From Streptomyces hundungensis (GTDB lineage: Bacteria > Actinomycetota > Actinomycetes > Streptomycetales > Streptomycetaceae): a stretch of 64,000 nucleotides of DNA. Location of the stretch: NCBI RefSeq assembly GCF_003627815.1, contig NZ_CP032698.1, positions 3,162,001 through 3,226,000 on the forward strand, read 5' to 3'. The position numbers and the translations under genes are program-made. The notes under the pieces are model-generated. The model was not told where the DNA came from, ran no database searches, and saw only the letters and a list, made by a program, of their open reading frames with translations. How positions within the stretch are numbered: the first letter of the stretch is position 1; each line of letters opens with the position of its first letter. Of the stretch, positions 7,253 to 56,891 are shown one piece after another.

Positions 7253-7299
7253 GCTTCGGCGAAAAGCCCCCAGGGTCCCGAATGCAGGAGGAGTTCACC

Positions 7300-24400: not shown

Positions 24401-27400
24401 GCCGCGCTCGGCGGCGAGGCGGGTGGTGCCGTTGGTCAGGCGCAGTTCGGGTACGAGCGCGCCCAGTTCGGTGAGGTCGGCCCTGGGCTGGTTCTGGAAG
24501 CTGAGCACGGTGTCGATCAGGTCGGCGACGCCGGCGACGCGCTGCACCTCGGACAGGCCGAGGTGGTGGTGCTCCATGAGGTCGGTGCCGCGGGCCTGCA
24601 CCTGACGGACCAGGTCGGCGAAGGGCTGCGCGGGGTCGAGGGTGACCCGTACCGGCAGCATGTTCATGAAGAGGCCCACCATGCCGTCCACGCCCGGCAG
24701 TTCGGGCGGCCGAGCCGAGCTGACGGCGCCGAACACGACGTCGGAGCGGCCGGTGCGCCGGCCGAGGACGACCGCCCAGCACGCCTGGAGGACGGTGTTG
24801 AGCGTGACACTGTGCTCGCGGGCGAAGGCCGTGAGGCGCGTGGTGAGGTCCTCGGTCAGCTCGAACACCGCCGACTCGGGGAGCCGGGAGGCGTCGCCCC
24901 CGTCGCCGGTGCCGAGGCGGGTGGGTTCGGTGACCCCCTCCAGCGCGGCGCGCCAGGCGTCCCGGGCCGCCGGCAGGTCCTGCCCGGCGAGCCAGTCGAA
25001 GTAGTCGCGGTACGGCGGGGCGGGCGGCAGCGCGCGGGGGTCGCCTCCGGCCGCGTACAGGGTGAACAGCTCCCGGGCCAGGACGCCCATCGACCAGCCG
25101 TCGACCAGCAGGTGGTGCAGCGTCCACAGCAGGCGTACGCGCTCGCCGGGCAGCCGCAGCACGGTGAACCGCAGCAGCGGGGCGGCGGCGAGGTCGAAGC
25201 CCCGCTCCCAGTCGGCGTCGGTCAGCCGCTCGATCTCGGCGGTGCGCTCCGCCTCGTCGCCCAGGGCGGTGAGGTCGGCCTCGGCCCACGGGGTGCGGGC
25301 GTGCGGCGCCACGGTCTGGAGGTGCTCCTCCTGTCCGGGCGTGGTGGGGAAGCAGACGCGCAGGCCCGCGTGGCGGGCCAGCAGCGCGTCGGCGGCGGCG
25401 CGGAAGGTGTCCGCGTCGAAGAGCCCCTCGATGTCGAGGACGACCTGCATCAGATACGAGTCGGTGTGCTGCTTGTCCAGTTCGGCCTGGAAGAGCAGGC
25501 CCTTCTGGAGCGGGGAGAGCGGCAGCACCTCGGGGGCGTCCGCCGCGCTCTCCCGGTGGCGTACGAGGGCGTCGAGCGCCCGGAACCAGGTGTGGGCGAT
25601 GTCGTGCGCGTCGTCGTCGGCGAACACGTCGGGCGCCCAGATCCAGTCGGCGACCAGGTGGGGGCCGTCCGCCCGGTCCTCGGTGACCGGGGTGACGGCC
25701 AGGGTGTGCCGCAGCGGCATGCGGGGGTGGGTGCCGGTGCCGACGACACCGTCGTCGGTGACCAGGGACCAGTCGCCGGCCGGCTCGTCGGTGCGGAACC
25801 GGCCGAGGTAGTTGAAGCCGATCGCCGGGGTGCCGTGGCGGGCCAGGGCGGGCAGGGTCTGGGGGTTGAGGTGGCGCAGCAGTCCGAAGCCGAGGCCGTG
25901 GTCGGGCAGCCGGCGCAGCAGTCGGCGCACCTCGCGCACGGCGGCGCCCGCGCCGGGCCCGCCCGCCCACGGCTCGTCCCGGTCGACGGTGTCGCCGAGG
26001 GCGAGCAGGACGGGGTAGACGCTGGTGAACCAGCCGACCGTACGGGAGAGGTCGACGTCGTCGGTGAACTGTTCGCGGCCGTGGCCCTCCAGCTCGACCA
26101 GGGTTCCGGCGGGCGAGGTGTCGCCGTGGCGTCGCCGCCAGTCGTCGACGGCGATCGCCAGGGCCGCCAGGAGCAGGTCGTTGACCTCGCCGTCCCGGGC
26201 GCCGGACAGCAGGGTGGCGGTGGTGTCGGCGGGCAGTTCCAGGCGGAGCCGGTGGGCGTTGCCGTAGGTGTCCCGCGCCGGGTCCAGCGGGCCGGATCCG
26301 ACCGGGGTGGCGGCGCCCGTCAACTGCTCGGCCCAGAGCGGGAATTCGGCGAGCCGCTCGGCGGTCCGTGCCTGTTCGCCCAGGAGCCGGGTCCACCGGC
26401 GGTAGGAGGTGGGCACCGGGTCGAGTGCGGCTCCGGCGACGGCGGCGGCGAGGTCGGGCACCAGGATGCGCCACGAGACGCCGTCCACGCACAGGTGGTG
26501 GGTCAGCCACACCAGCCGGCCGGGGCGCCCGGGCCCCGCGTCGAGCAGCACGAGTTGGGTCACCAGGGCCCGTTCGGGGGCGAGCCGGGTGCGCGCGAGG
26601 TCGATCTGGTCGCGGACGGCGGCGGCGAGCGCGGCCGGGTCGTCGGCCAGGGCGGAGACGTCGAGGCGGTGCACCACGTCGGCGGCGGCCACCGCGCCCT
26701 GCTCCAGGGCGGTCAGGGACCACAGCCCGGGGGCGGGGACGGAAAGACGCGTCCGCAGGGCGGGGTGCCGGTCGAGGACGGCGGCGGCCGCGGAGCGCAG
26801 CGTGTCGAGGTCGAGGCCCGCGGGGGTGGTGAGCACGACGTACTGGCTGTACTGGCGTGAACGCTCGTCCAGGGCCCCGAGGTCCTCCCTCAACTGGGCG
26901 GCGATCGGGGCGAGTTCGACCTCGCCGGTCCCGTCGCCACCGTCGGCGGCCGGGCCCGGGGTCCCGGGTGTCGCCAGGGCGGCGATCGCGCGGGGCGTGC
27001 CGTGTCCTCTGATCAGGAGCGGGGTGAGCGAGAGGCCCGCCTTGCGGGCGCGGCTGACCGCCAGGATGGTGCTGATGCTGTCGCCGCCCAGGGCGAAGAA
27101 GTTGTCGTCGACGCCGACCGAGGGCAGGCCGAGGATCTCGGCGAAGACGGCGCAGAGGATCTCCTCCTCGCGTGAGCGCGGGGCGCCCGCCACGGCGGCC
27201 ACGCTGTCGGGGCCGGCGTCCGGCCGGGGCAGCGGCAGCGCCTTGCGGTCGACCTTGCCGTGCGCGGTCAGCGGCAGACGGTCGAGGGCGACCAGGTGCT
27301 GGGGGACCATGTAGGAGGGCAGGGTCTGCTTCAGATGGGCGCGGACCGCGCCGAGGTCGAGGGCCTCCCCGTCGCGACCGACGGCGTACCCCACGAGCTG

Positions 27401-30097
27401 CTTGCCGCCGTTGGGGTCGTCGGTGACCTTGACCGCCGCGTCGGCCACGGCGGGGTGGCCGCGCAACGCGGCCTCGATCTCGCCGAGTTCGATGCGGTGG
27501 CCGCGCACCTTGACCTGGTCGTCGCGGCGTTCCAGGAACGTCAGTTGGCCGTTCTCGTCCCAGCGGACGCGGTCGCCGGTGCGGTACATGCGGGAGCCCG
27601 GCGCGCCGAACGGGTCGGCGACGAAGGTCGCCGCCGTGCGGCCGGCGGCGCCCAGATAGCCCCGGCCCACCCCGGTCCCGGCGACGTACAGCTCGCCGGG
27701 CGTGCCGTGCGGGACGGGGCGCAGGTCGTCGCCGAGTACGTACAGGCGGGTGTTGCGGACCGGGATGCCGATCGGCACCGGGCGGTCCTGGGGCGGGGCC
27801 TGCGCGATGTGCGCGTGGGTCACGTCGTCGGAGCACTCGGTGGGGCCGTACGCGTTGACCAGCGGAGTACCCGGGTAGCGGGCGAGCCAGCGCGCGCACA
27901 GGTCGGCGGGGAGTGCCTCGCCGGTGACCATGAGGTGGCGCAGCCCCGGCAGGGGGATCTCGGTGCCGTCGAAGTCCCAGACGTCCAGGGCGGCGCGCAG
28001 CAGCGAGGGGACGACTTCGAGGACGGTGACGCCGTCGGCGGCGGCCAGCGGGAAAAGCAGGTCGGGGTCGGCGGCGGTGTACCGGTCGACGGCCCGCACC
28101 CGGCCGCCCACGACGAGCGGCGCGAGCATCTGCCAGACGGAGATGTCGAAGGTCACCGGGGCGTTCTGCACCAGCGTGTCGTGTTCCCCGAGGTCGAGGT
28201 CGTCGACCTTGGCGAGCAGGTGGTTGACCATGCCGGCCCGGTGCACCATGGCACCCTTCGGCTTGCCGGTGGAGCCGGAGGTGAAGATGACGTACGCCAG
28301 GTCCTGTGGGTCTCCCGCGAGCGGGGCGAGGGCGTCGGCCCGGTCCTCGGAGCCGTCGGGGGTGACCAGGCGCACGGGCCGGCCCACGGCGGAGGCGGCC
28401 CGTTCGGCGAGGGCGCGGTGTTCGGCGTCGGCCAGCAGATGGTCGATGCCGTTGTCGGCGAGCAGCGCCGTGGTGCGGGCGACGGGGGCGTGCGGGTCCA
28501 GGGGTACGTAGGCGGCCCCTGCGCCCATGACGGCGAGCACCGCGGTCACGAACCCGGCGCCGGGCGCCGCGAGAACGCCGACCAGACCGGTGCGGGGAAG
28601 CGTGCGCGACAGGGCGCTGGCCCGGCCCACGAGGGCGGCGTAGGTGAGGCGCTCGCCGTCCTCCTCGACGGCGATCGCCTCGGGCCGCCGGGCGGCCTGG
28701 GCGCGGACACGCTCCACGACGCAGGCGAAGTCCGCGGCGCGCACCGGGCCGGTGCCGGTCCGCAGCCAGGCCTCCTCGGTGTCCCCGGCCGTGCCCACCC
28801 GTCCGATCGGCTCGTCGTCGGCGGCGGCCGCGAACTCCTCGGTGAGGGCGGCGAGTTGGTCGAGGTGGGCGCGCGCCTCCTCGGGCGTGTAGCGGTCGGG
28901 GTTGGCGTTGAGGTGGAGTTCGATGCCGTCGTCGGCACGCTCCACGACGGTGATCATCAGGTCGTCGACGAGCCCGGTGGACAGGTTGTTCACCTCGGCG
29001 GTGCAGGGGCCGAGCGCCAAGGAGGCCTGCTGGGGCAGGAGGTTGACGAAGGGGCCGAACGGTCTGCGGTCCTCCGCGCGCAGCCCCATGTCGCGGCGGA
29101 TCGCGCTCACCCGGTGCCGTTGGTGCTTGAGCACCTGGGCCAGTTCCCGGGAGGCCCGGCGCAGCAGTTCGGCCTTGGTCAGGGTGGGGCGTACGGGCAC
29201 CCGCAGCGGCAGGTAGTTGGCCATCATGCCGGGCACGGCCCGCTGCCGGGCGCTCATCCGGGCGGAGGCGGCCAACGTCAGCAGGACCTCCTCGGTGCCC
29301 GCGGTGCGCTGGGTGTGCACGGCCACCGCGGCCACGGCCGCGGTGGGCAGCGTGACGTCGGCGCGGCGTGCGCTGTCGCGCAGCCGGCGCGCGGCCCCGG
29401 CGGACAGCGCGGCGGAGACGCGCAGGAAGCCGGTCGGCAGCCCGTGGGACTCCGGCCGGCGGGACAGGGTGACGAGTTCGGGCGGCTCGGGGAAGCGGCC
29501 CCGCCAGAACGCCTGGTCGCGCCGGGCGCCGGTGGACTCCCGGTAGGCGCTCTCGGCGTCGGTCAGCTCGCTCAGCGGGGGCAGCGCCCGGCCCGGCACG
29601 GCGCCGTCCGGGTCCGCCTCGTACAGCTCGGCGAGCCGGCGCCACAGGACGGTCTGACTGAAACCGTCGCACAGCAGGTGGTGGACGCAGAGATAGAAGT
29701 AGGAGCGTTCGTCGCCGACGGTCAGGAGCGCGGTGCGCATCAGCGGGAAGTCGTCGAGGCCGAAGGGCACGTCCAGGTCCGCGGACATCCAGGCGAGCGC
29801 GGCGCCCCGCGGGTCCTCGGAACGCCTCAAGTCCTGTTCGTACAAGGGGAGTTCGTCGAGCTGCTCGATGTGCTGGCGCGGCTCACCGTCGATGTCGGTG
29901 AAGCGGGCCCGCAGGCACTGGGCCTCCTCGAACAGGCGCCGCAGCGCGGCGCGCAAGCGCCTGCGGTCCAGGGGGCCGCGCAGATCGAGGTAACCGGCGG
30001 AGTTGTACGCGTTGTTGCGCCCGGCGCCCTGTGCGTCGAGCCAGATCTCCACCTGGCCCGCGGTCAGCGGCAGCACGGTGCCATGAGTCGAAGTCAT
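15443..30097 (-). CDS. Four-module nonribosomal peptide synthetase, C-A-T-E-C-A-T-C-A*-T-C-A-T-TE
   Basis: The product is about 4,884 residues; ATG 30097 is preferred over GTG 30100 because GGGAG lies 6 bp before it. Approximate domains: C1 8-440 (HHLLCDG), A1 455-960, T1 975-1040 (GGDSI), E 1065-1510 (HHLCVDG), C2 1525-1960 (HHLLVDG), A2 1985-2470, T2 2485-2550 (GGDSL), C3 2565-3000 (HHIAWDG), A3 3025-3450 (degenerate), T3 3465-3530 (GGHSL), C4 3545-3980 (HHIAADG), A4 4005-4500, T4 4515-4580 (GGHSL) and TE 4610-4880 (GWSYGG). Every C and E active site is intact. Pocket residues read by alignment to GrsA are DIWEMTADD (A1), DAWGIAGLA (A2) and DILQVGLIW (A4). A4 matches glycine codes; A1 is acid-lined, so a basic residue such as 2,3-diaminopropionate is plausible, epimerised to D by E; A2 is GrsA-Phe-like with a larger pocket, so Trp or chloro-Trp is plausible. 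The first C domain implies an acyl cap. Confidence 0.93.
18369..19014. repeat. NRPS internal repeat, copy in C4
   Basis: About 645 bp of C4 is almost identical in DNA to 21307-21958 in C3, from the QNNER...NPLFQ region to DLSRAYG. Both copies use G/T-ending codons (TTG, GTG, GGG, GCG, CGG, GAT) while flanking NRPS sequence prefers C-ending ones. Identity at the DNA level with a shared odd codon style points to recent duplication or gene conversion. Confidence 0.8.
19760..20990 (-). other. Degenerate adenylation domain A3 of the NRPS
   Basis: The A1-A2 cores are intact ([27 protein letters not shown]), but the A3 core (normally [11 protein letters not shown]) reads [20 protein letters not shown], the A5 core NLYGPTE reads [11 protein letters not shown], and after the A7 core (YRTGDRARW) and GRAED the frame jumps directly to the T-domain linker. 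The A8 hinge and the whole A9-A10 subdomain with the catalytic Lys (GK-DR) are missing. Outer parts are near-identical to A4 DNA. This domain should not adenylate any amino acid. Confidence 0.88.
20706..20740. repeat. 15-bp tandem duplication inside degenerate A3
   Basis: GTGAGGCCGTCGGTC occurs twice in tandem (20706-20720 and 20721-20735), followed by a third GTGAG. In the protein it produces [12 protein letters not shown] in place of the end of the A2-A3 linker. It is a sign of relaxed constraint in this domain. Confidence 0.8.
21307..21958. repeat. NRPS internal repeat, copy in C3
   Basis: This copy pairs with 18369-19014. Divergence rises sharply on both sides: beyond the GACAGATCGCG end the sequences differ in GGGCCAGC versus CAGGAGGG, and the C3 N-terminal third and C-terminal linker are clearly distinct from C4. 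The repeat covers the region after the HHxxxDG motif. Confidence 0.8.
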
Positions 30098-30186
30098 CAC
30101 AGGCTCCCAGGAGAGGTCGGGCCGGCGGTCACCATCGGGCAGGGGGTGCGGGGCCGGGCCGGGTGCGGGCCGTAAACGATGGGTTC

Positions 30187-30249: not shown

Positions 30250-31431
30250 TCAGGCGTCGGCCGGGACGCGGCGGCGGTCGCGGTCGACCTTTCCGCCGAG
30301 CAGCCCCTGGAAGAGGTTGAGCCGCTGCATGTTGCCGGTGCCTTCGAGGAACTCCATCGCCCGGGCGTCGCGGGCCAGCTTGTCCAGGAAGGGGTGGGAC
30401 AGGCGCGCCCCGGGCCCGAAGAACGCGGCGGCCGCGAGGGTGACGTCCTCGGCGAGCCGGGCGGCCCGCAGTTTGGCGGCCGAGGCCAGATGGCCGTCGG
30501 TGCCGCGGGCGTCCACGGCGGCCGCCGCGTGGTGCACCAGGTGGCGGGTGGCGTCCACGCGCCGGACCAACTCCTCGTAGCGCTCGCGCTCGGCGCCGCT
30601 CAGCGTGGAGCGGTGCTCGGCGACGTATTCGAGGGCGGCGCGGGCGATGCCGACGGCGATGGCCGCGACACCGGGTCGCAGCACGTTGAAGGTCTGCACG
30701 AACGCCCACACCCCGCGCCGGGTCGCGGTGAGATGGCGGCCGAGGAAGCGGTCCTCGGGGATCGGCATCCGGTCCATGACGACCGAGCTGATCCGGGCGC
30801 CGCGCAGCCCGATCATGTCGAGCGGCCGGGCGTCGAAGCCGGGCTCGGCGGTGTCGACGAGCACGGCCGTGATGCCGAGCGGCCCGGGCCTGGCCCGCGC
30901 GAACACCACGCCCAGCTGGGCGCGGCAGGCGTTGCCGACGTAGCGCTTCTCGCCGCTCAGCAGGGCGCCCCCGTCCGGTGTGGAGGTCAGCGAGGTGCGC
31001 ATCGCCGCCGCGTCCGAGCCGCCCTCCGGTTCGGTCAGGGCGAAGCAGGTCCACAGCGGCTCGGCGAGCACCCGCCCGTAGAACCAGCGTTTTTGCCGGT
31101 CGTCGGCGCACAGGCCGACGGCTACGCCGGCCAGCAGCGGCCCGGGCGAGGCGACCAGGGTGCCGACGTCGGCGCAGGCCAACTCCTCCATGACGACGGC
31201 CCGTTCGAGGGCGGAGACCCCGTAGAAGCGGTGGCCGCCGATCTTCTCGGGTTCGTGGCCGTACTCCTCGGGGACGCCCATCGTGGCGAGGTGGCGCACG
31301 GCGGGCAGCGCGAAGTGGTGGCGGACGGCCTCCGGGTCGCGGTCGATCTCCAGGGCGAGCGGACGCACCTGGGCGCCCCATTCGCGGATCTGGCCGCGCA
31401 GGATGAGGAGACGGTCGTCGAGGTGGGTCAC
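30250..31431 (-). CDS. Acyl-CoA/acyl-ACP dehydrogenase, catalytic subunit
   Basis: This 393-residue flavoprotein has the three-domain acyl-CoA dehydrogenase plan: the helical N-terminal part (VMEELACADVGTLVASPG), the substrate/FAD segment CFALTEPEGGSDAAAMRT, GEKRYVGNACRAQLGVVF, and the C-terminal region with the usual catalytic Glu in MEFLEGTGNMQRL. It would desaturate an acyl thioester at alpha,beta. GTG 31431 overlaps the upstream half-dehydrogenase gene, so the two are coupled and may form a heteromeric enzyme. In context the likely substrate is the amino-acyl chain on the nearby carrier protein (inference). Confidence 0.85.
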   Translation of the reverse strand: MTHLDDRLLILRGQIREWGAQVRPLALEIDRDPEAVRHHFALPAVRHLATMGVPEEYGHEPEKIGGHRFYGVSALERAVVMEELACADVGTLVASPGPLLAGVAVGLCADDRQKRWFYGRVLAEPLWTCFALTEPEGGSDAAAMRTSLTSTPDGGALLSGEKRYVGNACRAQLGVVFARARPGPLGITAVLVDTAEPGFDARPLDMIGLRGARISSVVMDRMPIPEDRFLGRHLTATRRGVWAFVQTFNVLRPGVAAIAVGIARAALEYVAEHRSTLSGAERERYEELVRRVDATRHLVHHAAAAVDARGTDGHLASAAKLRAARLAEDVTLAAAAFFGPGARLSHPFLDKLARDARAMEFLEGTGNMQRLNLFQGLLGGKVDRDRRRVPADA

Positions 31432-32126
31432 GGTGCCTCCTTCGCCGCGGCGTACGCCTCGGCCAGCAGCTCCGACACATAGGCGGTCAGACCGGGGCTG
31501 TCGGTGAGATAGCCCGCCGCGCCCAGCAGCCGCACCTGCTCCCGGTCGGCGGCGGTGATCCGCCCGTGCAGATGGTCGAGCATCCCGGGCGAAAGGTCCC
31601 CGGGGCGCGCCCCGCTCAACACGGCCTGGATCTCCAGGTGTTCGGCCAGAACGTCGGCGACCGTGCCCTTCACCAGTTGCTGCTGGAGCAGGGTGGAGTC
31701 CCCGACGCGCCGGTGCGCGAGGCGGGTGAAGCAGGCGGCGCGCAGCGCCTGGGCGAGCCCGAGGCGCAGCCATACGAGCCCCAGGCCGTACACCTCCCGT
31801 GGTTCGGCGCCGGCGCCCGCGTCGCGGTCCGCCGGCGCCGCGTGCCCGGTGTCGAGCAGGACCACGCGGCCGCCCGGCAGGTCGAGTTCGGCCCGTATCT
31901 TCGTACGCGCCGGGTCCAGGGGCCGCCGCGCGCCGTCCAGCCAGAGCGCGTGGGCCCCGGCGTGGGTCGGCGCGGCGACGACGGCGTGCCCGCCGGGCCC
32001 GCACGGCAGCAGACCGGGCAGGACGCCGTCGGCCAGCGCGGCGAGCGCGGGGGCCGGGCCCTCGTGCCGGGCCGCGTCGTGACAGCGCTCCAGGAGTGCG
32101 GCGGTGTCGGACACCAGGGTGGTCAT
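31428..32126 (-). CDS. Truncated acyl-CoA dehydrogenase-like protein, probable partner subunit
   Basis: This 232-residue protein lacks the N-terminal helical domain and the TEPxGGSD segment. Its C-terminal half, LVWLRLGLAQALRAACFTRLAHRRVG then LLQQQLVKGTVADVLAEHLE, resembles the C-terminal helical bundle of acyl-CoA dehydrogenases. No catalytic Glu motif is seen. It overlaps both neighbours by ATGA/GTGA. By analogy with heteromeric actinobacterial dehydrogenases, where one partner has lost the active site, it may form the second subunit with the 30250-31431 product. The assignment is modest. Confidence 0.55.
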   Translation of the reverse strand: MTTLVSDTAALLERCHDAARHEGPAPALAALADGVLPGLLPCGPGGHAVVAAPTHAGAHALWLDGARRPLDPARTKIRAELDLPGGRVVLLDTGHAAPADRDAGAGAEPREVYGLGLVWLRLGLAQALRAACFTRLAHRRVGDSTLLQQQLVKGTVADVLAEHLEIQAVLSGARPGDLSPGMLDHLHGRITAADREQVRLLGAAGYLTDSPGLTAYVSELLAEAYAAAKEAP

Positions 32127-33001
32127 GGCGCTCCCCGGTCGAGCAGGCAGACGCTCAGCTCCGCCGAGTCCGGGTCGTGGTCCACCAGGACGCGCCGGGC
32201 GTCACGCCCCTCGGCCGGCGTGACGCAGCCGACCTCCGCGGCCAGCGCGCCGAACACGCCCGAGGCCGGGAACCCGTCCGGGGCGGAGACCGTGAGCCCG
32301 GTGTGCCCGGGCAGATCGCGCGCGGCCCGAAGGCCGGGGCTGAGGACGGCCGGCACCTCCGGATCGCACTCCAACTCGTCCAGGGCGGTGCGCACCGCGG
32401 CCGGAACGTCCTCCGCGGCCACCCCCGACATCCGGCGCATCGCCAGCGAGCCGGCCCGTCCGGCGGCCGTGAACAGCAGCGCCGCCCCCGCGTCGCCCGC
32501 GAGGTGGCGCCCGGTCTCGTACGGCAGCCGCGCCTGGTCCAGGACGAAGACCGCGGCGGTGCGGTGCCCGTGGCGCCGGATGTAGGCGTCCGCGAGCTCC
32601 AGGGCGGCGAACGGCGCCGCCGAGCCGCAGTCCGCGACGGTGAACACCAGGGGCCGGCCGGGGATGATCTCGGAGAGACAGGTGACCGCGGCGCGTCGGC
32701 AGTCCAGGTCCGGGGTGGCGTGGGCGACGACGGCGAGGCCGATGTCGGCGGGCTCCGGCGTGAGGTCGGCGAGGAGGGCGGCGGACATGGCGGCGAAGGT
32801 GTTGCCCGCCGCGTCCGCCACCTCGGGCCGGGGTTCGACGCCGTACAGGGCACTCAGATCGGCGAAGTGCCTTCGCGAGAACGGGTCGTCGATCCGCGTG
32901 GTCCCGGCGGAGAAGCTCCGGTGCACGATCCTGTCGAGCCGCAGCGGGAACCTGACCGGTGCCCGCCGCGCGGGCGAGGCCCCGGCGGGGTGTGCGGCCA
33001 T
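32123..33001 (-). CDS. KAS III-like thiolase-fold protein
   Basis: This 292-residue protein of ketosynthase III-like length has a candidate nucleophile Cys in FTVADCGSAAPFAALELADAY, followed by a KAS III-like core (AAVFVLDQ, GDAGAALLFTA). The His and Asn elements of true KAS III (HQAN and GNTSAAS) are not recognisable, so it may be an acyltransferase or a non-condensing partner rather than a synthase. ATG 33001 lies directly after the ACP stop at 33004, and the gene overlaps the next by ATGA. Role inferred: transfer of the amino-acyl unit. Confidence 0.6.
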   Translation of the reverse strand: MAAHPAGASPARRAPVRFPLRLDRIVHRSFSAGTTRIDDPFSRRHFADLSALYGVEPRPEVADAAGNTFAAMSAALLADLTPEPADIGLAVVAHATPDLDCRRAAVTCLSEIIPGRPLVFTVADCGSAAPFAALELADAYIRRHGHRTAAVFVLDQARLPYETGRHLAGDAGAALLFTAAGRAGSLAMRRMSGVAAEDVPAAVRTALDELECDPEVPAVLSPGLRAARDLPGHTGLTVSAPDGFPASGVFGALAAEVGCVTPAEGRDARRVLVDHDPDSAELSVCLLDRGAP

Positions 33002-33003
33002 CG

Positions 33004-33273
33004 TCAGGAGCCCATTTCCGCGGCGATGAAGTCGGCGAGCGTCCGCACGCTGGTGAAGTGCGCCATCTCCAGGGAGTCCGTGTCGAACTCGATGTCCAGC
33101 GCCTCTTCGAGCCGCATCAGCATCTCGAAGACGCCCGTCGAGTCGAGCCCGAGCTCGTCGAACAGGCGGGAATCCTCGGTGAGTTGGGGCAGCTCGTAGT
33201 CGAGTACCTCCGAGAGCGCGGCGGAGATCGCGGAGACGATCACGTCGCGGTCGGTGGCGGTCAGTCCGGCCAT
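33004..33273 (-). CDS. Acyl carrier protein (aminoacyl carrier candidate)
   Basis: This 89-residue carrier has the phosphopantetheine Ser45 in FDELGLDSTGVFEMLMRLEE. ATG 33273 has AAAGGA upstream; longer frames are not used. It sits immediately downstream of the PLP decarboxylase and ATP-grasp genes, the same trio as butirosin BtrI (carrier), BtrK (decarboxylase) and BtrJ (ligase), in which glutamate is ligated to the carrier and decarboxylated there. It is distinct from the PKS ACP at 44702 and the FAAL ACP at 59956. Confidence 0.88.
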   Translation of the reverse strand: MAGLTATDRDVIVSAISAALSEVLDYELPQLTEDSRLFDELGLDSTGVFEMLMRLEEALDIEFDTDSLEMAHFTSVRTLADFIAAEMGS

Positions 33274-33338
33274 GGCGGTGGTCCTTTCGAAGGGGGCACG
33301 GGGGACAGAAGGGCACCGGGGTCGTGCGGTGGGCCCGG

Positions 33339-34670
33339 TCAGTGGGTGGCGGCCCGGCGGAACGCGGCCGCGGCCGGCAGGTGCTGTTTGCGCAGCAGGT
33401 CGTCGGGCCGGTCCGCCTCGCGGATCAGATGCGCCCGGCCGTCGGCGACGAGCACTTCGGCGGGGTAGCCGTGGCTGAGGAAGTGCACGGGTGAGGCGGT
33501 CGGCCCGTACGCGCCGGAGCGCTCCACGCCGAGCAGGTCCCCGGGCCGCAGCGGCGGCAGCTGGGCCTTCTTGGCCAGCGTGTCGTTGGGGGTGCACAGC
33601 GGCCCCGTCACGTTCCAGGCCTCCGTCGGCTCGGGCCCCGTACCGTCGAGGCTGCCGCTGAGCAGGCGCAGGGGGAAGTTCCGCTTCACGAAGGAGCCGA
33701 TGCCGACGGCCGCCATGTGGTGGTGGGTGCCGCCGTCGGTGACCGCGAACCGCTCGCCGAGCGAGGTCTTCACATAGCGCACGCGCACCACGTACGTGCC
33801 GGACTCGGCGGTCAGATAGCGGCCGAGCTCCATGACCAGACGGGTGCCGGGGTGGGCGTCGGCGAACCGGGCGATCACCGGGTTGAGGTCCCCGGCCAGG
33901 GCGGTCAGGTCGAGGTCGTGTTCGCCGTCGAAGTAGGCGACGCCGAGGCCGCCGCCGATGTCCACGAGCTCCAGTGCGAAACCGAGCGTGGCCGACAGGC
34001 GCTCGGCGAGCTCGAAGATCTGCTCGGTGTTGCGCACGATGGTGGCCTCGGTCAGGATCCGGGTGCCCATGTAGACCTGGACACCCCTGATGTGTACGTG
34101 CTCATAGCGCTCCACCAGGCCCTTCTCCGCCAGGAGTTGGGCCTCGTCCATGCCGAACTGGCGGGGTTTGCCGCCCATGGTGAGGCCCGAGCCCTTGATG
34201 GAGAAGGCCGGGTTGACGCGCAGCACGACCGGGGCGCGCACCCCGCGTTCGCGGGCCAGCTCGTCGATCCACGCCAGCTCCTGGAGCGACTCGCACACGA
34301 CGGCGGCGATGTTCTCGTCGAGACAGGCGGCCAGCTCGGCGCGGCTCTTGCCGGGCCCGAGGAAGAGGATGTCCTCGGGGGCGACGCCCGCGCGGCGCGC
34401 GGTGAGCAGCTCCGTCATCGAGGAGACCTCGGCGCGCGCGCCGTGCGCGTGCAGCAGGGCGCAGACGGCGATGTTGGGGTTGGCCTTGAGGGAGTAGAAG
34501 ATCTGCAACCGTTCGTCGAACGCCTCGCGCAGCGCCCGCATCCGGCCCGCGAGCGCGTCCCCGTCGTACACGAACAGCGGGGTGCCGTAGGTCCGGGCGA
34601 GTTCGGCGACGGGGATGCCCTGCACGGTGGCCGGGCCCTCCCGCACGTCTGCTCCCGTGGTGATGGTCAT
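33339..34670 (-). CDS. PLP-dependent decarboxylase (LysA/BtrK family)
   Basis: This 443-residue fold-type III enzyme has the PLP lysine K62 in QIFYSLKANPN, the phosphate loop VDIGGGLGV, and the Cys loop GPLCTPNDTLA with the downstream Tyr in VERSGAYGPTASP. The family includes diaminopimelate and ornithine decarboxylases, but also BtrK, which decarboxylates glutamyl-S-carrier protein. Overlap (ATGA) with the ATP-grasp gene and 65-bp spacing to the carrier gene favour the BtrK-like role over lysine synthesis. The substrate amino acid is not proven; glutamate giving a 4-aminobutyryl thioester is the parallel. Confidence 0.85.
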   Translation of the reverse strand: MTITTGADVREGPATVQGIPVAELARTYGTPLFVYDGDALAGRMRALREAFDERLQIFYSLKANPNIAVCALLHAHGARAEVSSMTELLTARRAGVAPEDILFLGPGKSRAELAACLDENIAAVVCESLQELAWIDELARERGVRAPVVLRVNPAFSIKGSGLTMGGKPRQFGMDEAQLLAEKGLVERYEHVHIRGVQVYMGTRILTEATIVRNTEQIFELAERLSATLGFALELVDIGGGLGVAYFDGEHDLDLTALAGDLNPVIARFADAHPGTRLVMELGRYLTAESGTYVVRVRYVKTSLGERFAVTDGGTHHHMAAVGIGSFVKRNFPLRLLSGSLDGTGPEPTEAWNVTGPLCTPNDTLAKKAQLPPLRPGDLLGVERSGAYGPTASPVHFLSHGYPAEVLVADGRAHLIREADRPDDLLRKQHLPAAAAFRRAATH

Positions 34671-36051
34671 GCGACGGTGTCCCTTCCGGCCGCGAGACGG
34701 GCCGCTATCCGGGTGTCGAGGGCTTCGACGGCGTCGTCGGAGTCCGCCACCAGCACGCCGTAGAGGCGGCCCGCGACAGGGCCCTCGGGCGCCCGGCCGC
34801 CGGTGGGGAAGCCCGCGTTGACGGTGGCGTAGTTGTTGACGAGCAGGCCCGTGCCGCGCGCGCGGTCGAAGAGGAGCCCGTCCAGGAGCCGGTGGGCGGC
34901 CGCGAACGGCAGGGGCGCGGCCAGCCGCAGCGGGTAGTGGCGGGCGACGGCGATCTGCCGGTCGGCGACGAACTGTTCCTGGAGGCGCACCTGGTACGTG
35001 GACATGTTGTTGCGGGCGTTGATCTCCACGACGGGGTAGAGCTCGCCGTCGGGGTCCACCATGGCGTCCACGCCGACCACGCCGAAGTAGCCGTCGGCGG
35101 CGAGCCGTTTGCCGAGCCGTTCGGCGGTGCCGCGCACCTCGTCGAGCTGGGCCGCGGTGAGCCGGGCGGGCATCCGGTGGCCCTTGTGCACACCGCCCTC
35201 GGTGAGCTGTTCCTTCACGAAGTCGAAGTGTGTGGTGCCGTCGCGGGCGACGGTGAACTGGTAGTTCAGATCGCCCTGTTTGGCCACCCACTCCTCGACG
35301 ACGAAGCTGACCGCGTCGTGGCCCGTGCGCTCGGCCTGGCGGGTGACCATCGCGAGGATCCGCTCGCCGCGTCGCCTGCTCTCCAGGACGGCGATGCCCT
35401 TGCCGGAGACGCCGAACGCCTCCTTGACCACATACCGCCGCCCCTCGTCGCCGGCCGCGGCCGCGAAGGCGGCGCCCAGTTCGGCGAGGGTGGCACAGGC
35501 CCAGCCGCGGGGCTGGCGCAGTCCGAGCTCGTCGGCGACGCGCCGGCTGTAGACCTTGCTGTTGACCGCCTTGCAGGTGACGGCGGAGGGGGCGGCGACG
35601 CCGAGGCCGGTCGCCGCGGCCAGCACCTCCTCCTGTGCGGAGACGCCGTGGGCGGCGATGCGGCAGCCCTGGGCGGCCAGGCCCGACAGGTCGGCGAGCA
35701 GCGCGGGGTCGGCGAGCGCGTCCTCGGTGACGGTGCGGGCCGGGTCCTGCGCGGTGGCCACGTGGAGGTGCGGCAGCCGCACCCCGAGCTCCGCGAGGAA
35801 GGCGAGGTGGTCGTCGTCCGGGCGGGACTTGAGGACCACGTGGTCTGCCGCGTCGCCGAGCAGCAGCGCGAACTCGTCCATGTGGTTGACCACCGCGTCG
35901 GCCGCCGGGGCCGACAGGCGGGGCAGGGTGTGTTCGCCGCGCGCCCACTGCTGTTCCACCTCGAAGTTGCCGAGGAAGACCAGGGGGTCTCGGGCGTCCC
36001 GGTGAGTGCCGTCGCGAGTCGCTCGCGGAAGCCGGGCGAAGTGCCGGTCAT
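34667..36051 (-). CDS. ATP-grasp amino acid-carrier protein ligase (BtrJ-like), apparent frameshift near the start
   Basis: The main frame (stop at 34667, open from GTG 35959) gives 430 residues with ATP-grasp features: KVYSRRVADELGLRQPRGW, RRYVVKEAFGVSGKGIAVLE (ATP lysines), SFVVEEWVAKQGDLNYQFTV and YPVVEINARNNMSTYQ (metal ligands). The frame upstream of GTG 35959 reads DPLVFLGNFE but has no start codon. A separate frame opens at ATG 36051 behind GAGAGG and reads MTGTSPGFRERLATALTGT. One extra base in the G5 run at 35983-35987 (C5 in coding sense) would join them into MTGTSPGFRE...TPLVFLGNFEVEQQW. Either the read is one base short, or the gene starts internally at GTG 35959. Role by analogy: ligation of an amino acid onto the carrier protein. 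Confidence 0.78.
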
Positions 36052-36118
36052 GTGCCGTCCTCTCGGGGTCTGGGGAGCTCGCGGGCGGCGGGCCGCGCGA
36101 GGCTCGGTGCCGTGGCCG

Positions 36119-37048
36119 TCAGTGCTGGAGCACCATCGCCGCGAAGGACTGGCCGAGGCCCGCGGAGGTCATCACATAGGTGGCTCCGGGCCGCAGCAGG
36201 CCCAGTTCGCGGGCGGACTGGTAGTTGATGAAGGGGTCCGCGCAGAAGCAGTGGCCGGTGCGCGCGATGTTGTCGAGGAAGATGCGCTCGGCGGGGATGC
36301 CCAGTTCTTTGGCGGCGACCGTCCACGAGACGCGGTTGACGTTGTGCGGCAGGATCAGGTCGACGTCGGCGATGGTGAGCTCGGCGTCGGCGAGCGCGCT
36401 GTGGACGACGTCGGACATGACGTCCTGGTAGATGCGCTTGGCTTCCCTGGCGCCCTCGGGGTCCAGGTCGATGACGCCGTCCTCGCGGCCGACGATGCGC
36501 GCGTGGTAGCCGAGCACCCGGTCGCGTGGGCCGTCGGCGCTGACGAGCAGGGCCGTCATGCCCTCGCCCATGATGGAGACGTCCGCGACCCACTGCGAGA
36601 ACGGGGTGAAGGTCTTGTCCCCGGCCAGCACCAGGGCCAGTGCGTCGGGGTCGTCGTCGCCGGCCAGCAGGGTGCCCGCCACGTCGACGGCGAGAAGGCC
36701 GGTCGCACAGCCGTGGTCGGCCACCGAGAAGACGTTGGCGTTGCGCAGTCCGAGCACCTCGCGCACCTGCTGCAAGGGGCTGACCGGGTAGGGCGCCGTG
36801 GTCCGCAGGCCCTTGGCCCGGATCACATGGCGCACCCGGTCCTCCTGGCCGGCCAGGGCGTCCAGTTTGCCGACCGCCGCGAGCAGCATCTCGGCCTCGG
36901 ACTGGTCGGGGGCCTGGCAGATCTGGTCGAGGCCGTAGAGCCGGGTGAACCTGCGCACCTGCTGGTCGTCGAGGCCCAGCGGTTCCCGCAGGTCGGCCAC
37001 GGAGATGGTGGGCGGCAGGTAACTCGACACCGCTTCCAGTGAGGTCAT
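36119..37048 (-). CDS. Ketosynthase III-like enzyme with altered triad
   Basis: This 309-residue KAS III-fold enzyme has Cys114 in SVADHGCATGLLAV and His235 in LILPHNVNRVSW. The third catalytic position, normally Asn in GNTSAA, reads RTGHCFCADPF, so it is His266. ATG 37048 is chosen because AAGGAGG lies 9 bp upstream; the longer frame to 37081 lacks this. It is the first gene of the starter-unit operon, under a three-repeat SARP promoter. It may prime the type II PKS by condensing the starter with malonyl-ACP or may transfer it; the changed triad makes transfer a real option. Confidence 0.8.
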   Translation of the reverse strand: MTSLEAVSSYLPPTISVADLREPLGLDDQQVRRFTRLYGLDQICQAPDQSEAEMLLAAVGKLDALAGQEDRVRHVIRAKGLRTTAPYPVSPLQQVREVLGLRNANVFSVADHGCATGLLAVDVAGTLLAGDDDPDALALVLAGDKTFTPFSQWVADVSIMGEGMTALLVSADGPRDRVLGYHARIVGREDGVIDLDPEGAREAKRIYQDVMSDVVHSALADAELTIADVDLILPHNVNRVSWTVAAKELGIPAERIFLDNIARTGHCFCADPFINYQSARELGLLRPGATYVMTSAGLGQSFAAMVLQH

Positions 37049-38143: not shown

Positions 38144-38854
38144 TCATCCGCAGCCTCCCGCGTGCCCGTCGTCGACGGCTCTTCGGCCGAGTCCGACCGC
38201 GCCGACGGGCTGCGGCAGGGCGGGAGCGGTGAGCTCGCGCTCGCGCAGGTGGCGGACGAAGTCCGGCAGCCGGTCCAGGCCCCAGAAGCGGGTGAAGCCG
38301 TGCACGAAGAAGGGCACGCCGAACACCCCGTCCGCGCAGACGTCGAGCAGGACGCGCACCCCTTCCGCCCGCAGTGCCGGGTCGTCGCTCGCCCCGGCCA
38401 ACTCGGCCGGATCGAGACCCAGTTGGGCGCCGATGTCGGCGACGACGCGGCGGTCGCAGATGTCGCGGCCCTCCTCCCAGCGCGCACGGTAGGCGGCGGC
38501 GACGTACTGCGGGCCGCGCCCTTCGCGCCGGGCCACCAGATAGGCCAGATGCGGGATCTCCCACACCGGGTCGCGGTCGACCGGCCAACTCAACGCGATC
38601 TCACGGGACTTGGCGAGCCGGTTCACGTCCTGGAGCACATAGAGGTGCTTGGCGCGCGACATGGCGGTGTACGGGAAGGTGCCGCCGGCCTCGGTCAACA
38701 GGCGCTCGCTGACCGCGTCCGGCTCGAAGAAGGGCCGCCACTCGACGGCGGCCGCCACCTCCGGGTAGCGGGCCATCAGGTCGCGGTGGGCGAGCCAGGA
38801 GTAGGGGCTGCGCAGCGAGAAGTAGAACCTCGGGGTCTTCGGGTCGGCTCTCAC
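38144..38854 (-). CDS. DsbA-fold isomerase (2-hydroxychromene-2-carboxylate isomerase-like)
   Basis: This 236-residue thioredoxin-fold protein is of the kappa-GST/DsbA type: FYFSLRSPYSWLAHRDL has Ser at the active turn and no CxxC, and GVFGVPFFVHGFTRFWGLDRL carries the cis-Pro loop. Such proteins act as glutathione-independent or -dependent cis/trans isomerases. Members occur next to highly reducing type II PKS genes, where double-bond isomerisation of the polyene is proposed. GTG 38854 follows the KR stop by 1 bp, so it belongs to the PKS operon. Confidence 0.75.
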   Translation of the reverse strand: MRADPKTPRFYFSLRSPYSWLAHRDLMARYPEVAAAVEWRPFFEPDAVSERLLTEAGGTFPYTAMSRAKHLYVLQDVNRLAKSREIALSWPVDRDPVWEIPHLAYLVARREGRGPQYVAAAYRARWEEGRDICDRRVVADIGAQLGLDPAELAGASDDPALRAEGVRVLLDVCADGVFGVPFFVHGFTRFWGLDRLPDFVRHLRERELTAPALPQPVGAVGLGRRAVDDGHAGGCG

Positions 38855-38855: not shown

Positions 38856-39605
38856 TCAGATCACCAGGCCTCCGTCGACCCCGAGCACCTGGCCCGTGAT
38901 GTACGAGGCCCGCTCCGACACCAGGAAGGACACCAGGTCGGCGACCTCGTCGGGGCGGCCGAAGCGGCCCAGCGGGATGCGTTCGGCGAGCTTGTCGGCG
39001 CTGTCCTCGCCCAGGGCCGCCGTCATGTCGGTCTCGATGAAGCCCGGCGCCACCGTGTTGACACGGATGCCGCGCGGCGCCACCTCCTTGGCCAGGGCCT
39101 TGGAGAAGCCGATGATCCCGGCCTTGGACGCCGAGTAGTTGGTCTGGGTGGCGTTGCCGTACACCCCGGCGACGGAGGACATGGTGACCACGGTGCCGGC
39201 CCGGCGCTTCAGCATCCCGAAGACCGCCGCACGGCAGATGTGGTACGTCCCGTCGAGGTTGACCCGCAACACGTCCTGCCACGCCTGGTCGTTGAGCATG
39301 ATCAGCGGGTTGTCCCGGACGATCCCGGCCGAGGAGACCAGCGCGTGGACGGGCCCGAGCTCCCGCTCGGTCGCGCGGACGAACTCCTGGGCCTGGGCCC
39401 CGTCCGCCACGTCCACGCGTCGGGCGAACACCCTCGCGCCCGCCTCCTCGGCCTCCTTGGCGACGGCCTGGGCCTCCTCGTCGCGCGAGCGGTAGCAGAA
39501 CGCCACGGCGAAGCCGTCGGCGGCGAGCCGGCGCACCACGCTGCGACCGATCCCCCGGGAGCCCCCGGTGACCAGTGCGACGCGGGGTTTGTCTGCGGAC
39601 ATCAT
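38856..39605 (-). CDS. 3-oxoacyl-ACP reductase (type II PKS ketoreductase, FabG-like)
   Basis: This 249-residue short-chain dehydrogenase has [11 protein letters not shown] (NADPH binding), SSAGIVRDN, catalytic Ser in [11 protein letters not shown], the YSASK pair, and [10 protein letters not shown], all FabG-like. It reduces beta-ketoacyl-ACP in each polyene extension cycle. ATG 39605 and ATG 39602 are both possible; GAGAGG spacing slightly favours the second. The gene lies between the dehydratase genes and the isomerase gene in one operon. Confidence 0.9.
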
Positions 39606-39624
39606 GACCTCTCGTGGGTTGTCT

Positions 39625-40122
39625 TCACGGGCTCGCGAGGACGGCGGCCTCGGCGAGCGACTCCAGCTCCGCGGCCGGGCGCAGCGCGAACGTGAGCTGT
39701 TCGACCTCCAGGACCCGCCGTCCGTCCACGGAGCTGGAGCCGCGGGTGACGACGGTGTCGCCGAGGTCGCGGACCAGGGTGACCTCGTGCACCAGGACCG
39801 ACCCCGGGTAGACGGACCCCAGGACGCGGGCGTCGCGCACCCCGGCGCCCAGCGTGACCTGCCCGGTGCGCACATCGGGGTTGGGCCGCTCCCAGCACGC
39901 CAGCAGCAGCGCGGCCTGCGCCCAGGACTCCAGCATCATGCTCGCCGGGTACGCGTACTCCTGCGCCGCTCCCTGGGCCAGGCCCCGGTAGGCGGGTTCG
40001 GCGACGCTGACCGCCTTGTACGCGGTCAGATGCTTGCCCGGTTCCACCTCCCCGAGCCGGTCCACCAGCAGCGCCGGGTGGCGGTGCGGGATGACGGAGG
40101 TGATGCGGAATTCGGGGTTCAC
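39625..40122 (-). CDS. FabZ/FabA-like dehydratase subunit 1
   Basis: This 165-residue hotdog protein has [21 protein letters not shown] with the FabZ catalytic His region, and [23 protein letters not shown], where Glu sits at the second catalytic position (FabZ VxxVExxAQ). It overlaps the 40119-40532 gene by ATGA. Two adjacent hotdog proteins suggest a heterodimeric dehydratase that forms the polyene double bonds after the ketoreductase step. Confidence 0.82.
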
Positions 40123-40532
40123 TCGTCCTCCTGGTCGGGGCGGTCCTGCGGGAAGTGCAGGGCGATGCGGGCGGCGGGCCGGGCGTCCGCGCTCACGGAG
40201 GCGGTGGCCCGCACCCCGTGGTCACCGCGTTCGATCCGGGCCTCGATGACGAGTTCCTCGCCCGGCCGCACCGGGCTCAGAAAACGCGCCTTCTTGAGCA
40301 CGAACCCCCCTCCGTCGCCGACGCCGTGGGCGCGGACCAGGTCGTGGACGTACTGCACCAGGGCGAATCCCGGCACCAGCGGGAAGCCGGGGCAGTGGCC
40401 CTGGAGGAAGGGGGCGCCGTGGGCCACGGTGACGCTGCCGCGCACGGTCTCCTCGGCGGGCCGCGGGGCGGTGGGTTCGTGGGGCCACGAGGGCTCCAAC
40501 TCGGCGATGGTGAGGGCCTCTTCGAGCATCAT
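40119..40532 (-). CDS. FabZ/FabA-like dehydratase subunit 2
   Basis: This 137-residue hotdog protein carries LQGHCPGFPLVPGFALVQYVHD, equivalent to the GHFPGxPVxPG His motif of FabZ, and FLSPVRPGEELVIEARIE as the next strand pair. The Glu of the long helix is not obvious (Gln in VQYV), which fits a division of labour with the 39625-40122 protein. ATG 40532 (or 40529) has GAGGAGG about 8 bp upstream. Confidence 0.78.
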   Translation of the reverse strand: MMLEEALTIAELEPSWPHEPTAPRPAEETVRGSVTVAHGAPFLQGHCPGFPLVPGFALVQYVHDLVRAHGVGDGGGFVLKKARFLSPVRPGEELVIEARIERGDHGVRATASVSADARPAARIALHFPQDRPDQEDE

Positions 40533-40545
40533 GGACGTGTCCTCC

Positions 40546-44664: not shown

Positions 44665-44701
44665 CGGTGTCTCCTCTCTCTCGGCATCCGAGCGGCCGGG
44701 C

Positions 44702-55759: not shown

Positions 55760-55817
55760 GAAAGGCGGGGTTACCGGGTGGGAATCGCTCCGCCCGCCCG
55801 CTGCAATGGAGATTTGG

Positions 55818-56876: not shown

Positions 56877-56891
56877 GGTGAGGGGGCCCAA

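What the first reader, a model, noticed from the sequence alone, without database searches (positions are those of the whole stretch)
30250..37048. Butirosin-like amino-acyl carrier route placed as starter supply for a type II PKS
ATP-grasp ligase, PLP decarboxylase and a discrete carrier protein are adjacent and coupled, the same trio as BtrJ/BtrK/BtrI, which load glutamate on a carrier protein and decarboxylate it there. Here the trio is combined with a KAS III, a KAS III-like protein and a split acyl-CoA dehydrogenase. A 4-aminobutyryl or 4-aminocrotonyl thioester could prime the highly reducing PKS and yield an omega-amino polyene. Coupling of this route to a polyene type II PKS and an NRPS is not something I can match to a known product.
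Basis: partly seen in the sequence, partly recalled or inferred. Interest (0 to 1): 0.85.

Follow-up and report, generated by a model that had tools for sequence, protein, structure and literature searches.

The report
Enamide-linker cassette joining polyene to peptide
A seven-gene set in a soil bacterium most likely turns aspartate into an unusual unsaturated link between a polyene tail and a small peptide, as in the known enamidonin antibiotics, rather than making a starter piece for the polyene as first proposed.

Summary
The genes are real and coupled: KAS III, ATP-grasp ligase, PLP decarboxylase, carrier, pseudo-KAS III, reduced ACAD partner, full ACAD. The decarboxylase is BtrK-like, not LysA. 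The starter-supply reading does not hold. Among 80 actinobacterial relatives the first five genes are contiguous in 59, all seven in 47. Of 45 cassette genomes searched, chosen mainly for lacking a nearby KS-alpha, 22 gave no KS-alpha like the window's. Methylaspartate-mutase-like genes beside one sub-clade point to aspartate-type substrates. The same enzyme logic is published for dehydro-beta-alanine (Dba) in bolagladin and proposed for autucedine/olenamidonin: aspartate loaded on a carrier, decarboxylated, N-acylated by a KAS III, desaturated by an ACAD. The first NRPS module has a conserved acidic code, and the cluster encodes SbnA/SbnB, consistent with diaminopropionate, the residue bearing Dba in enamidonins. 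Two PKS-free relatives show an NRPS order matching enamidonin. Best reading: a polyenoyl-Dba-(D-Dpr)-peptide cluster, a type II PKS variant of the enamidonin kind. Caveats: no biochemistry; the ligase frame is broken near its N-terminus in this assembly.

The parts
36119..37048 (-). KS3: KAS III homologue; proposed acyltransferase joining the acyl chain to beta-alanyl-carrier
   Evidence: ACP_syn_III_C; Cys, His and a third-position His (Asn in FabH, from recall) in 70 of 71 rows, one row a gap; found in 69 of 80 loci, also in genomes without the KS-alpha
34667..36051 (-). ATP-grasp ligase; proposed loader of aspartate (beta-carboxylate) onto the carrier. Open as 34667-35959 (430 aa); the first 31 aa present in relatives are out of frame here
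   Evidence: PF18604, PF02655; nearest solved PGM1, E 1.9e-5; frame break; intact 461 aa in P0001 and L001
33339..34670 (-). BtrK-like PLP decarboxylase; proposed to decarboxylate the aspartyl thioester to beta-alanyl thioester
   Evidence: BtrK 304 bits vs 177 bits for the next solved relative; tree and LysA controls; ATG overlaps ligase stop
33004..33273 (-). ACPx: discrete carrier protein of the cassette
   Evidence: PP-binding 8e-11; attachment Ser in 67 of 67
32123..33001 (-). KS3L: KAS III fold without a conserved nucleophile; probable partner subunit of KS3
   Evidence: no Pfam hit; position is Ser here, Cys in 1 of 66; AF2 pLDDT 90.1, best folds AbyA1, NatS, ChlB3
31428..32126 (-). ACAD2: reduced ACAD-like partner subunit
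   Evidence: AF2 pLDDT 92.6; best PDB fold Tcur3481-Tcur3483 heteromeric ACAD
30250..31431 (-). ACAD1: catalytic ACAD; proposed desaturase making the enamide
   Evidence: three ACAD domains; catalytic Glu in 59 of 59
15443..30100 (-). NRPS: C-A1-T-E-C-A2-T-C-A3(degenerate)-T-C-A4-T-TE; it begins with a C domain, which would take its acyl donor in trans
   Evidence: Pfam: 5 Condensation stretches (one read as E), 4 AMP-binding, 4 PP-binding, 1 thioesterase; order and E domain from motif reading; A1 code conserved
38856..44962 (-). Reducing type II PKS block with no enoyl reductase seen: KR, two dehydratase-like proteins, CLF, thioesterase-fold protein, alpha/beta hydrolase, KS-alpha, ACP; proposed source of the polyene acyl chain
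   Evidence: Pfam/NCBIfam
38144..38854 (-). DSBA-like protein that often travels with the PKS block
   Evidence: DSBA 3.6e-21; synteny
55806..57869 (+). SbnB and SbnA: L-2,3-diaminopropionate supply, proposed for NRPS module 1
   Evidence: TIGR03944 416 bits (cut-off 327) and TIGR03945 374 bits (cut-off 350)
58223..60998 (+). Fatty-acyl-AMP ligase, ACP and phosphopantetheinyl transferase; alternative or additional acyl source
   Evidence: FAAL subfamily models (below their own cut-offs); PP-binding and 4PPT

Best explanation
The seven genes are a dehydro-beta-alanine (Dba) linker cassette. The ATP-grasp ligase loads aspartate through its side-chain carboxylate on ACPx (inferred); the BtrK-like enzyme decarboxylates it to beta-alanyl-ACPx (inferred from family). 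KS3, with its partner KS3L, transfers an acyl chain to the amino group (inferred), and ACAD1/ACAD2 introduce the double bond, giving N-acyl-Dba-ACPx (inferred from the bolQ deletion in bolagladin). The first C domain of the NRPS condenses this onto 2,3-diaminopropionate, which the E domain turns to the D form (inferred). In this cluster the acyl chain most likely comes from the adjacent type II PKS as a polyenoyl-ACP, so the cassette works downstream of the PKS, not as its starter. Shown here: the genes, their conservation, cassettes in genomes without a matching KS-alpha, and the conserved module-1 code. Order of acylation and desaturation is not settled.
For: Cassette conserved as a unit: 59/80 and 47/80 contiguous; no KS-alpha at E 1e-130 in 22 of 45 cassette genomes searched. 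In 9 Amycolatopsis loci where only the ligase sat by the PKS, a 70-72% identical decarboxylase exists in 9 of 9 genomes; in the 3 regions fetched KS3-DC-KS3L lie 26-28 kb from the ligase on a contig of the same length. Published: bolagladin BolO/BolC/BolN/BolM/BolP/BolQ, where bolN deletion is not rescued by beta-alanine and bolQ deletion gives dihydro-bolagladins (PMC7756342); AfcQ/AfcK/AfcP load L-Asp and decarboxylate it on the carrier in vitro (PMC12186527 passages); olenamidonin/autucedine KAS III joins acyl-CoAs to Dba-ACP as proposed (PMC11204786). Methylaspartate-mutase-E-like gene upstream of KS3 in 6 of 7 loci of one ligase clade (support 97), the seventh cut by its contig end. Module-1 code D(I/V)WE.TADD in the window and 14 of 15 readable relatives, six of them from genomes without the KS-alpha. 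PKS-free L110/L111 NRPS order: Dpr-like with E, a C domain without a detected A, Gly-like, Phe-like, matching the enamidonin ring order.
Against: No biochemistry was done. The autucedine paper (Org. Lett. 2022) was not readable and no S. olivaceus aut locus was among the fetched loci, so gene-for-gene identity with aut was not tested. Bolagladin and AFC-BC11 use a VinN-type adenylation enzyme, not an ATP-grasp ligase, and in AFC-BC11 the FAAL AfcA, not a KAS III, made the acyl transfer in vitro. BtrK acts on glutamate. The window also holds a FAAL/ACP pair. The ligase frame break may mean a non-functional enzyme here. Five loci with flanking sequence (L013, L021, L029, L068, L072) have the first five genes but no ACADs. 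In the three split Amycolatopsis regions ACPx and ACADs were not detected. The methylaspartate-mutase-like proteins score below their curated cut-offs.
Confidence: 0.8

Rival explanations
1. One reading: glutamate is loaded and decarboxylated to GABA (or desaturated to 4-aminocrotonyl) and KAS III uses it to prime the PKS, giving an omega-amino polyene.
For: BtrK is the nearest solved decarboxylase and acts on glutamate; the cassette adjoins the PKS block here.
Against: 22 of 45 cassette genomes searched show no such KS-alpha; FAAL and methylaspartate-mutase contexts; published Dba pathways account for each kind of enzyme here.
Confidence: 0.05
2. Same aspartate route, but beta-alanyl- or dehydro-beta-alanyl-ACP primes the PKS as in vicenistatin-type starter supply.
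For: Beta-amino-acyl starters from Asp or methyl-Asp are known for type I PKSs (stated in PMC7756342).
Against: Cassettes occur in genomes without this KS-alpha and share a Dpr-like A1 in an NRPS that starts with C.
Confidence: 0.07
3. The Dba cassette is right, but the chain joined to it is a fatty acid from the FAAL/ACP pair at 58223-60327; the PKS product goes elsewhere or extends the FAAL-loaded acid.
For: FAAL-type protein with ACP and PPTase; FAAL-like genes lie beside the cassette in 13 of 80 loci, with L010's confirmed as FAAL-type; in AFC-BC11 a FAAL transfers the acyl chain.
Against: 24 of the 33 ligases in the window's supported clade are scored PKS-linked, and the PKS block is collinear with the cassette in several.
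Confidence: 0.12
4. The decarboxylase is a LysA paralogue for free diaminopimelate, unrelated to the carrier protein.
For: TIGR01048 lysA 290 bits, just under its cut-off of 298; the best NCBIfam model is TIGR03099 (exosortase-associated decarboxylase) at 371 bits, under its cut-off of 478.
Against: BtrK 304 vs 177 bits; five LysA controls reach 422-471 bits, including the genome's own LysA L107; tree; overlap with the ligase gene.
Confidence: 0.01

Closest known systems
Enamidonin / autucedine / olenamidonin pathway (Streptomyces)
   Same: Acyl-Dba attached to a Dpr residue; KAS III proposed to join acyl-CoA to Dba-ACP (PMC11204786); Dpr supply genes and Dpr-like first A domain here; relatives L110/L111 predict the same ring order
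   Different: Acyl chain there a C7-C13 lipid; here a type II PKS is present, and the peptide order differs (A2 aromatic-like, A3 degenerate, A4 Gly-like). The aut genes themselves were not compared
Bolagladin pathway (Burkholderia gladioli)
   Same: Carrier protein, BtrK-like decarboxylase BolN, two KAS III homologues (active-site Cys replaced by Ser or Thr), ACAD BolQ, chain-initiating C domain
   Different: VinN-type adenylation enzyme BolO instead of ATP-grasp; citrate-primed fatty acid; serine at the acylated position; here KS3 keeps the Cys
AFC-BC11 pathway (Burkholderia)
   Same: L-Asp loaded on a carrier and decarboxylated there by a PLP enzyme; KAS III-like proteins and Dba in the product (passages)
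   Different: Iterative Asp loading, FAAL as acyltransferase in vitro, no NRPS C domains
Butirosin BtrI/BtrJ/BtrK
   Same: ATP-grasp ligase (recalled for BtrJ), discrete carrier and BtrK-like decarboxylase
   Different: Glutamate substrate; window decarboxylase 38% identical to BtrK; here acyltransferase-like and desaturase-like genes travel with the trio
Ishigamide-type reducing type II PKS
   Same: KS-CLF, KR, two dehydratase-like proteins and ACP, no enoyl reductase seen; ishigamide composition recalled
   Different: Here a Dba-type cassette and four-module NRPS follow. Direct sequence comparison was not made

Membership tests
Dehydro-beta-alanine (Dba) linker cassette | Discrete carrier plus BtrK-like decarboxylase | tested here: met
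Dehydro-beta-alanine (Dba) linker cassette | KAS III homologue(s) and ACAD encoded with them | tested here: met
Dehydro-beta-alanine (Dba) linker cassette | NRPS begins with a chain-initiating C domain | tested here: inconclusive
   NRPS starts with C, but the C-domain subtype was not determined by phylogeny
Dehydro-beta-alanine (Dba) linker cassette | Aspartate is the loaded substrate | not testable with these tools
   only indirect: methylaspartate-mutase context
Enamidonin-type lipopeptide | Dpr supply (SbnA/SbnB) | tested here: met
   both above equivalog cut-offs
Enamidonin-type lipopeptide | NRPS order Dpr, Dpr, Gly, Phe | tested here: not met
   window order Dpr-like, aromatic-like, degenerate, Gly-like by motif reading; compatible in L110/L111
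Butirosin BtrI/BtrJ/BtrK route | ATP-grasp, carrier and BtrK-like decarboxylase together | tested here: met
   BtrJ itself was not available for comparison
Butirosin BtrI/BtrJ/BtrK route | Glutamate substrate | not testable with these tools
   no assay; context argues for aspartate-type
PKS starter-supply route | Genes restricted to clusters with this kind of PKS to prime | tested here: not met
   no matching KS-alpha in 22 of 45 genomes searched; other PKS kinds were not searched
LysA diaminopimelate decarboxylase | Passes the lysA cut-off and groups with LysA | tested here: not met
   290 vs cut-off 298 bits, controls 422-471; tree

The most novel reading that the evidence does not exclude
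A KAS III/pseudo-KAS III pair moves a type II PKS polyene from its ACP onto the amino group of beta-alanyl-ACPx, so that one portable cassette splices a polyene, a fatty acid (FAAL clusters) or other acyl chains to peptides through an enamide; this cluster would make a polyenoyl-enamide lipopeptide, possibly with a halogenated aromatic residue, which I did not find described in the papers I could search.
Probability: 0.5. Interest if true: 0.6.

Novelty: new variant of a known kind. Interest (0 to 1): 0.42.

Why it matters
It places an apparently odd trio in a pathway with published precedent and shows that the cassette recurs across many actinobacterial genera in several acyl contexts. It predicts enamide lipopeptides with polyene tails, related to olenamidonins and autucedines that inhibit enterococci (PMC11204786), and gives a gene signature (KS3-ATP-grasp-DC-ACP-KS3L-ACAD2-ACAD1, often with SbnA/SbnB) for finding them. 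The pairing of a KAS III with a nucleophile-less partner as an amide-forming enzyme is directly testable.

Tried and rejected
Considered and rejected: LysA-type free decarboxylase; GABA/4-aminocrotonyl starter; PGM1-type peptide ligase as the main role of the ATP-grasp enzyme, because the ligase travels with decarboxylase and carrier. In 9 Amycolatopsis loci it first seemed to lack them; a decarboxylase exists elsewhere in all 9 genomes, but carrier and ACADs were not detected in the three 16-kb regions fetched. The cispentacin models seen score far below their cut-offs. A literature lead to pachycephalamides (PMC11446937, passages read) did not fit: no Dba was mentioned in the passages and the cluster differs.

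Led nowhere or flawed: one search took wrong reading frames for four reference decarboxylases; one search repeats it with tblastn-derived frames. In one search the cassette enzymes are nearer to two uncharacterised Amycolatopsis paralogues, L112 and L113 (support 1.0; L112 passes the TIGR03099 cut-off), than to BtrK, and the fork that would place BtrK against the own-genome paralogue L108 has support 0.025. The ligase tree is the quick tree, since the careful search was not finished; 24 forks are open, 10 end branches are flagged long and two of them meet. Paper searches (0 papers; 1 paper, listing only) found no direct match. No BtrJ, VinO, BolN or AutS sequence was compared. The autucedine and kutzneridine A papers were not seen, only citations and what other papers say of them, so whether kutzneridine already pairs Dba with a type II PKS is unknown to me. 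That I found no polyene-Dba lipopeptide in print rests on searches of an open-access library, most of them capped listings.

Limits: gene calls in relatives come from a simple GC3 caller of my own; the search for related loci kept 80 of 117 confirmed places. KS-alpha was searched in the genomes of 45 of the 80 loci, 43 of them chosen because no KS-alpha was called within 10 kb (L045 and L057 had one); in many of them only 40 first-look candidates were scored, and only matches at E 1e-130 were counted. Sixteen of 80 loci have KS-alpha within 10 kb. In the tree a row counts as PKS-linked if KS-alpha is within 10 kb, if a KS-alpha lies on a contig of the same length 14-34 kb away (L002, L014, L018, L034, L055), or if other PKS genes lie beside the cassette (L007, L008, L012, L016); this is a judgement. 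A-domain codes were read from motifs with reference positions from recall.
Full report
What is there. On the minus strand, between 37048 and 30250, seven genes follow each other: KAS III (KS3), ATP-grasp ligase, PLP decarboxylase (DC), discrete carrier (ACPx), KAS III-like (KS3L), a 232-aa protein (ACAD2) and an acyl-CoA dehydrogenase (ACAD1). At higher coordinates, upstream in the reading direction, lies a type II PKS block (38856-44962: KR, two dehydratase-like proteins, CLF, thioesterase-fold protein, alpha/beta hydrolase, KS-alpha, ACP) with a DSBA-like protein; downstream lies one 4885-aa NRPS (15443-30100). SbnB and SbnA, a tryptophan halogenase and a FAAL-ACP-PPTase group lie beyond the PKS block. 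The genome is one 8.39 Mb contig with a single close copy of the ligase and of the decarboxylase; the next ligase hit is 29% identical and the next decarboxylases 29% and 34%.

Corrections to the observation. ACAD1 is not half a gene: it has three ACAD domains and the catalytic Glu, found in 59 of 59 members. ACAD2 has no Pfam or NCBIfam hit; its model (pLDDT 92.6) best matches the heteromeric steroid ACAD Tcur3481-Tcur3483 (E 4.3e-6, TM 0.63 by query length), so ACAD1/ACAD2 are probably two subunits. KS3 keeps Cys and His, with His in the third position, in the 70 of 71 rows that have a residue there. In KS3L the matching position varies (V 21, S 10, T 8, Cys 1 of 66 rows), while its model (pLDDT 90.1) has a KAS III-type fold: a probable partner subunit without its own conserved nucleophile. 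The ligase frame is broken near its start compared with P0001 and L001.

Conservation and independence of the PKS. A ligase-profile scan of the GTDB species collection gave 117 confirmed places, of which 80 were kept. Gene calls find KS3 in 69, DC in 70, ACPx in 66, KS3L in 65, ACAD2 in 56 and ACAD1 in 58 of the 80 loci. KS3-ATPg-DC-ACPx-KS3L are contiguous in 59 of 80 and all seven in 47 of 80, with median gaps of -4 at ATPg>DC, KS3L>ACAD2 and ACAD2>ACAD1; contig ends account for part of the rest. Five loci with flanking sequence have the first five genes and no ACAD (L013, L021, L029, L068, L072). Nine Amycolatopsis loci showed only the ligase by a PKS block; all nine genomes hold a 70-72% identical decarboxylase. 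In the three regions fetched, KS3, DC and KS3L lie together 26-28 kb from the ligase on a contig of the same length, but ACPx and the ACADs were not detected in those 16 kb. KS-alpha lies within 10 kb in 16 of 80 loci. Of 45 further genome searches, 43 at loci without a nearby KS-alpha, 23 gave a match at E 1e-130 and 22 none. Of the matches checked, five lie on a contig of the same length as the cassette's, 14-34 kb away (L002, L014, L018, L034, L055); most others are on other contigs. In the quick ligase tree, 24 of the 33 rows in the window's clade (support 98) are scored PKS-linked, with a nested group of five without it (L017, L041, L042, L059, L065); the PKS label needs 7 changes. A starter-supply role does not explain a cassette, KS3 included, in genomes without this PKS; other PKS kinds were not searched.

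Substrate. The decarboxylase's best solved relatives are the two BtrK sequences (304 bits; the next, a DAP decarboxylase, 177 bits). It is 38% identical to BtrK and 26-30% to five LysA controls, which pass the lysA cut-off of 298 bits at 422-471 while it reaches 290. Its best NCBIfam model is TIGR03099, an exosortase-associated decarboxylase, at 371 bits against a cut-off of 478. In the tree (rooted on a LysA) the LysA controls fall outside a group (support 0.98) of cassette enzymes, BtrK, L108, L112 and L113; within it L112 and L113 are nearer the cassette enzymes (support 1.0) than BtrK is. In one ligase clade (support 97, 7 rows) a methylaspartate-mutase-E-like gene lies upstream of KS3 in 6 of 7 loci and the S-like subunit in 4 of 7; the missing ones are at contig ends. 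The two proteins tested score below the curated cut-offs, though these were the families they matched best. Methylaspartate is an aspartate homologue, so aspartate-type substrates are the simplest reading for the family. This is indirect.

Precedent. In bolagladin, the paper proposes adenylation of Asp (BolO), transfer to ACP BolC, decarboxylation by BtrK-like BolN, N-acylation by a KAS III with Ser or Thr in place of Cys (BolM, BolP), and desaturation by ACAD BolQ; deletion of bolN is not rescued by beta-alanine and deletion of bolQ gives dihydro-bolagladins (PMC7756342, section 7 read in full; other passages). In AFC-BC11, Asp loading by AfcQ on AfcK and decarboxylation on the carrier by AfcP were shown in vitro, while the acyl chain was transferred by the FAAL AfcA (PMC12186527, passages). 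Olenamidonins and autucedines carry acyl-Dba on a Dpr residue in a ring of L-Phe, D-Dpr, L-Dpr and Gly; a KAS III (OleH/AutS) is proposed to join acyl-CoAs to Dba-ACP (PMC11204786, Results read in full). [quoted passage not shown]

Link to the NRPS. By motif reading the NRPS is C-A1-T-E-C-A2-T-C-A3-T-C-A4-T-TE. The A1 code DIWEMTADD, with acidic positions E, D and D beside the usual first Asp, fits a diamino acid (inference). D(I/V)WE.TADD recurs in 14 of 15 readable relatives (L068 differs and has gaps; 4 more unreadable), six of them from genomes without the KS-alpha. SbnA/SbnB would supply Dpr. A2 (DAWGIAGLA) looks aromatic and A4 (DILQLGLIW) equals the glycine code, both as I recall the codes. 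A3 has lost its ATP-binding core, while the same module in L119 keeps it. In two PKS-free relatives (L110 of S. nigrescens HEK616, L111 of NRRL S-337) the order is Dpr-like, an E-like and a C domain without a detected A, then Gly-like and Phe-like, which fits the cyclic order of enamidonin as I read it from the NMR numbering. The cassette is thus tied to enamidonin-type products by prediction; the aut cluster itself was not available.

Mechanism and verdict. Most likely Asp is loaded on ACPx, decarboxylated, N-acylated by KS3/KS3L with the PKS-made polyene, desaturated by ACAD1/ACAD2, and handed to the first C domain of the NRPS for condensation with Dpr. Every step after gene identification is inference from family and precedent. 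The FAAL-ACP pair is the main competing acyl source. The type II PKS placed ahead of a Dba-type cassette, with a different peptide order, makes this a variant of a known kind; the most novel point still open is amide formation between two carrier-bound partners by a KAS III pair.

Noticed in passing
window 53974-55479, 52135-52659, 5634-7037, 7282-9410, 11023-12015: Tryptophan halogenase and flavin reductase, plus class II DAHP synthase, chorismate-binding and glutamine amidotransferase genes and a TrpD-like gene, suggest a halogenated aromatic residue, perhaps at the aromatic-like module 2.
   Followed up: partly
window 15443-30100 (module 3, residues about 3020-3440): Third adenylation domain has lost its ATP-binding core in frame; the relative in L119 keeps it.
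   Followed up: partly
window 35959-36051: Ligase reading frame broken in a C run near the N-terminus; intact in P0001 and L001.
   Followed up: partly
L066, L073, L074, L076, L077, L079, L080: Cassettes with methylaspartate-mutase-like genes (E-like in 6 of 7, S-like in 4 of 7), and an asparagine-synthetase-A-like gene in 4 of 7 (the one in L074 passes its cut-off); predicted to give a methylated linker.
   Followed up: partly
L117 (genome of Amycolatopsis sp. CA-128772, behind L040): A second, more divergent cassette (DC 58%, ligase 43%) lies on the same contig as the first.
   Followed up: no
L010, L015, L019, L020, L039, L043, L047, L056, L064, L071: Cassette preceded by a FAAL-like gene, two long ACAD-like proteins and an ACP: an acyl source without a PKS.
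   Followed up: partly
L013, L021, L029, L068, L072: First five cassette genes without ACADs: predicted saturated beta-alanine linker.
   Followed up: no
L112 and L113 (Amycolatopsis): Further decarboxylase paralogues 37-39% identical to the window's, one of them an exosortase-associated-type decarboxylase by TIGR03099.
   Followed up: no
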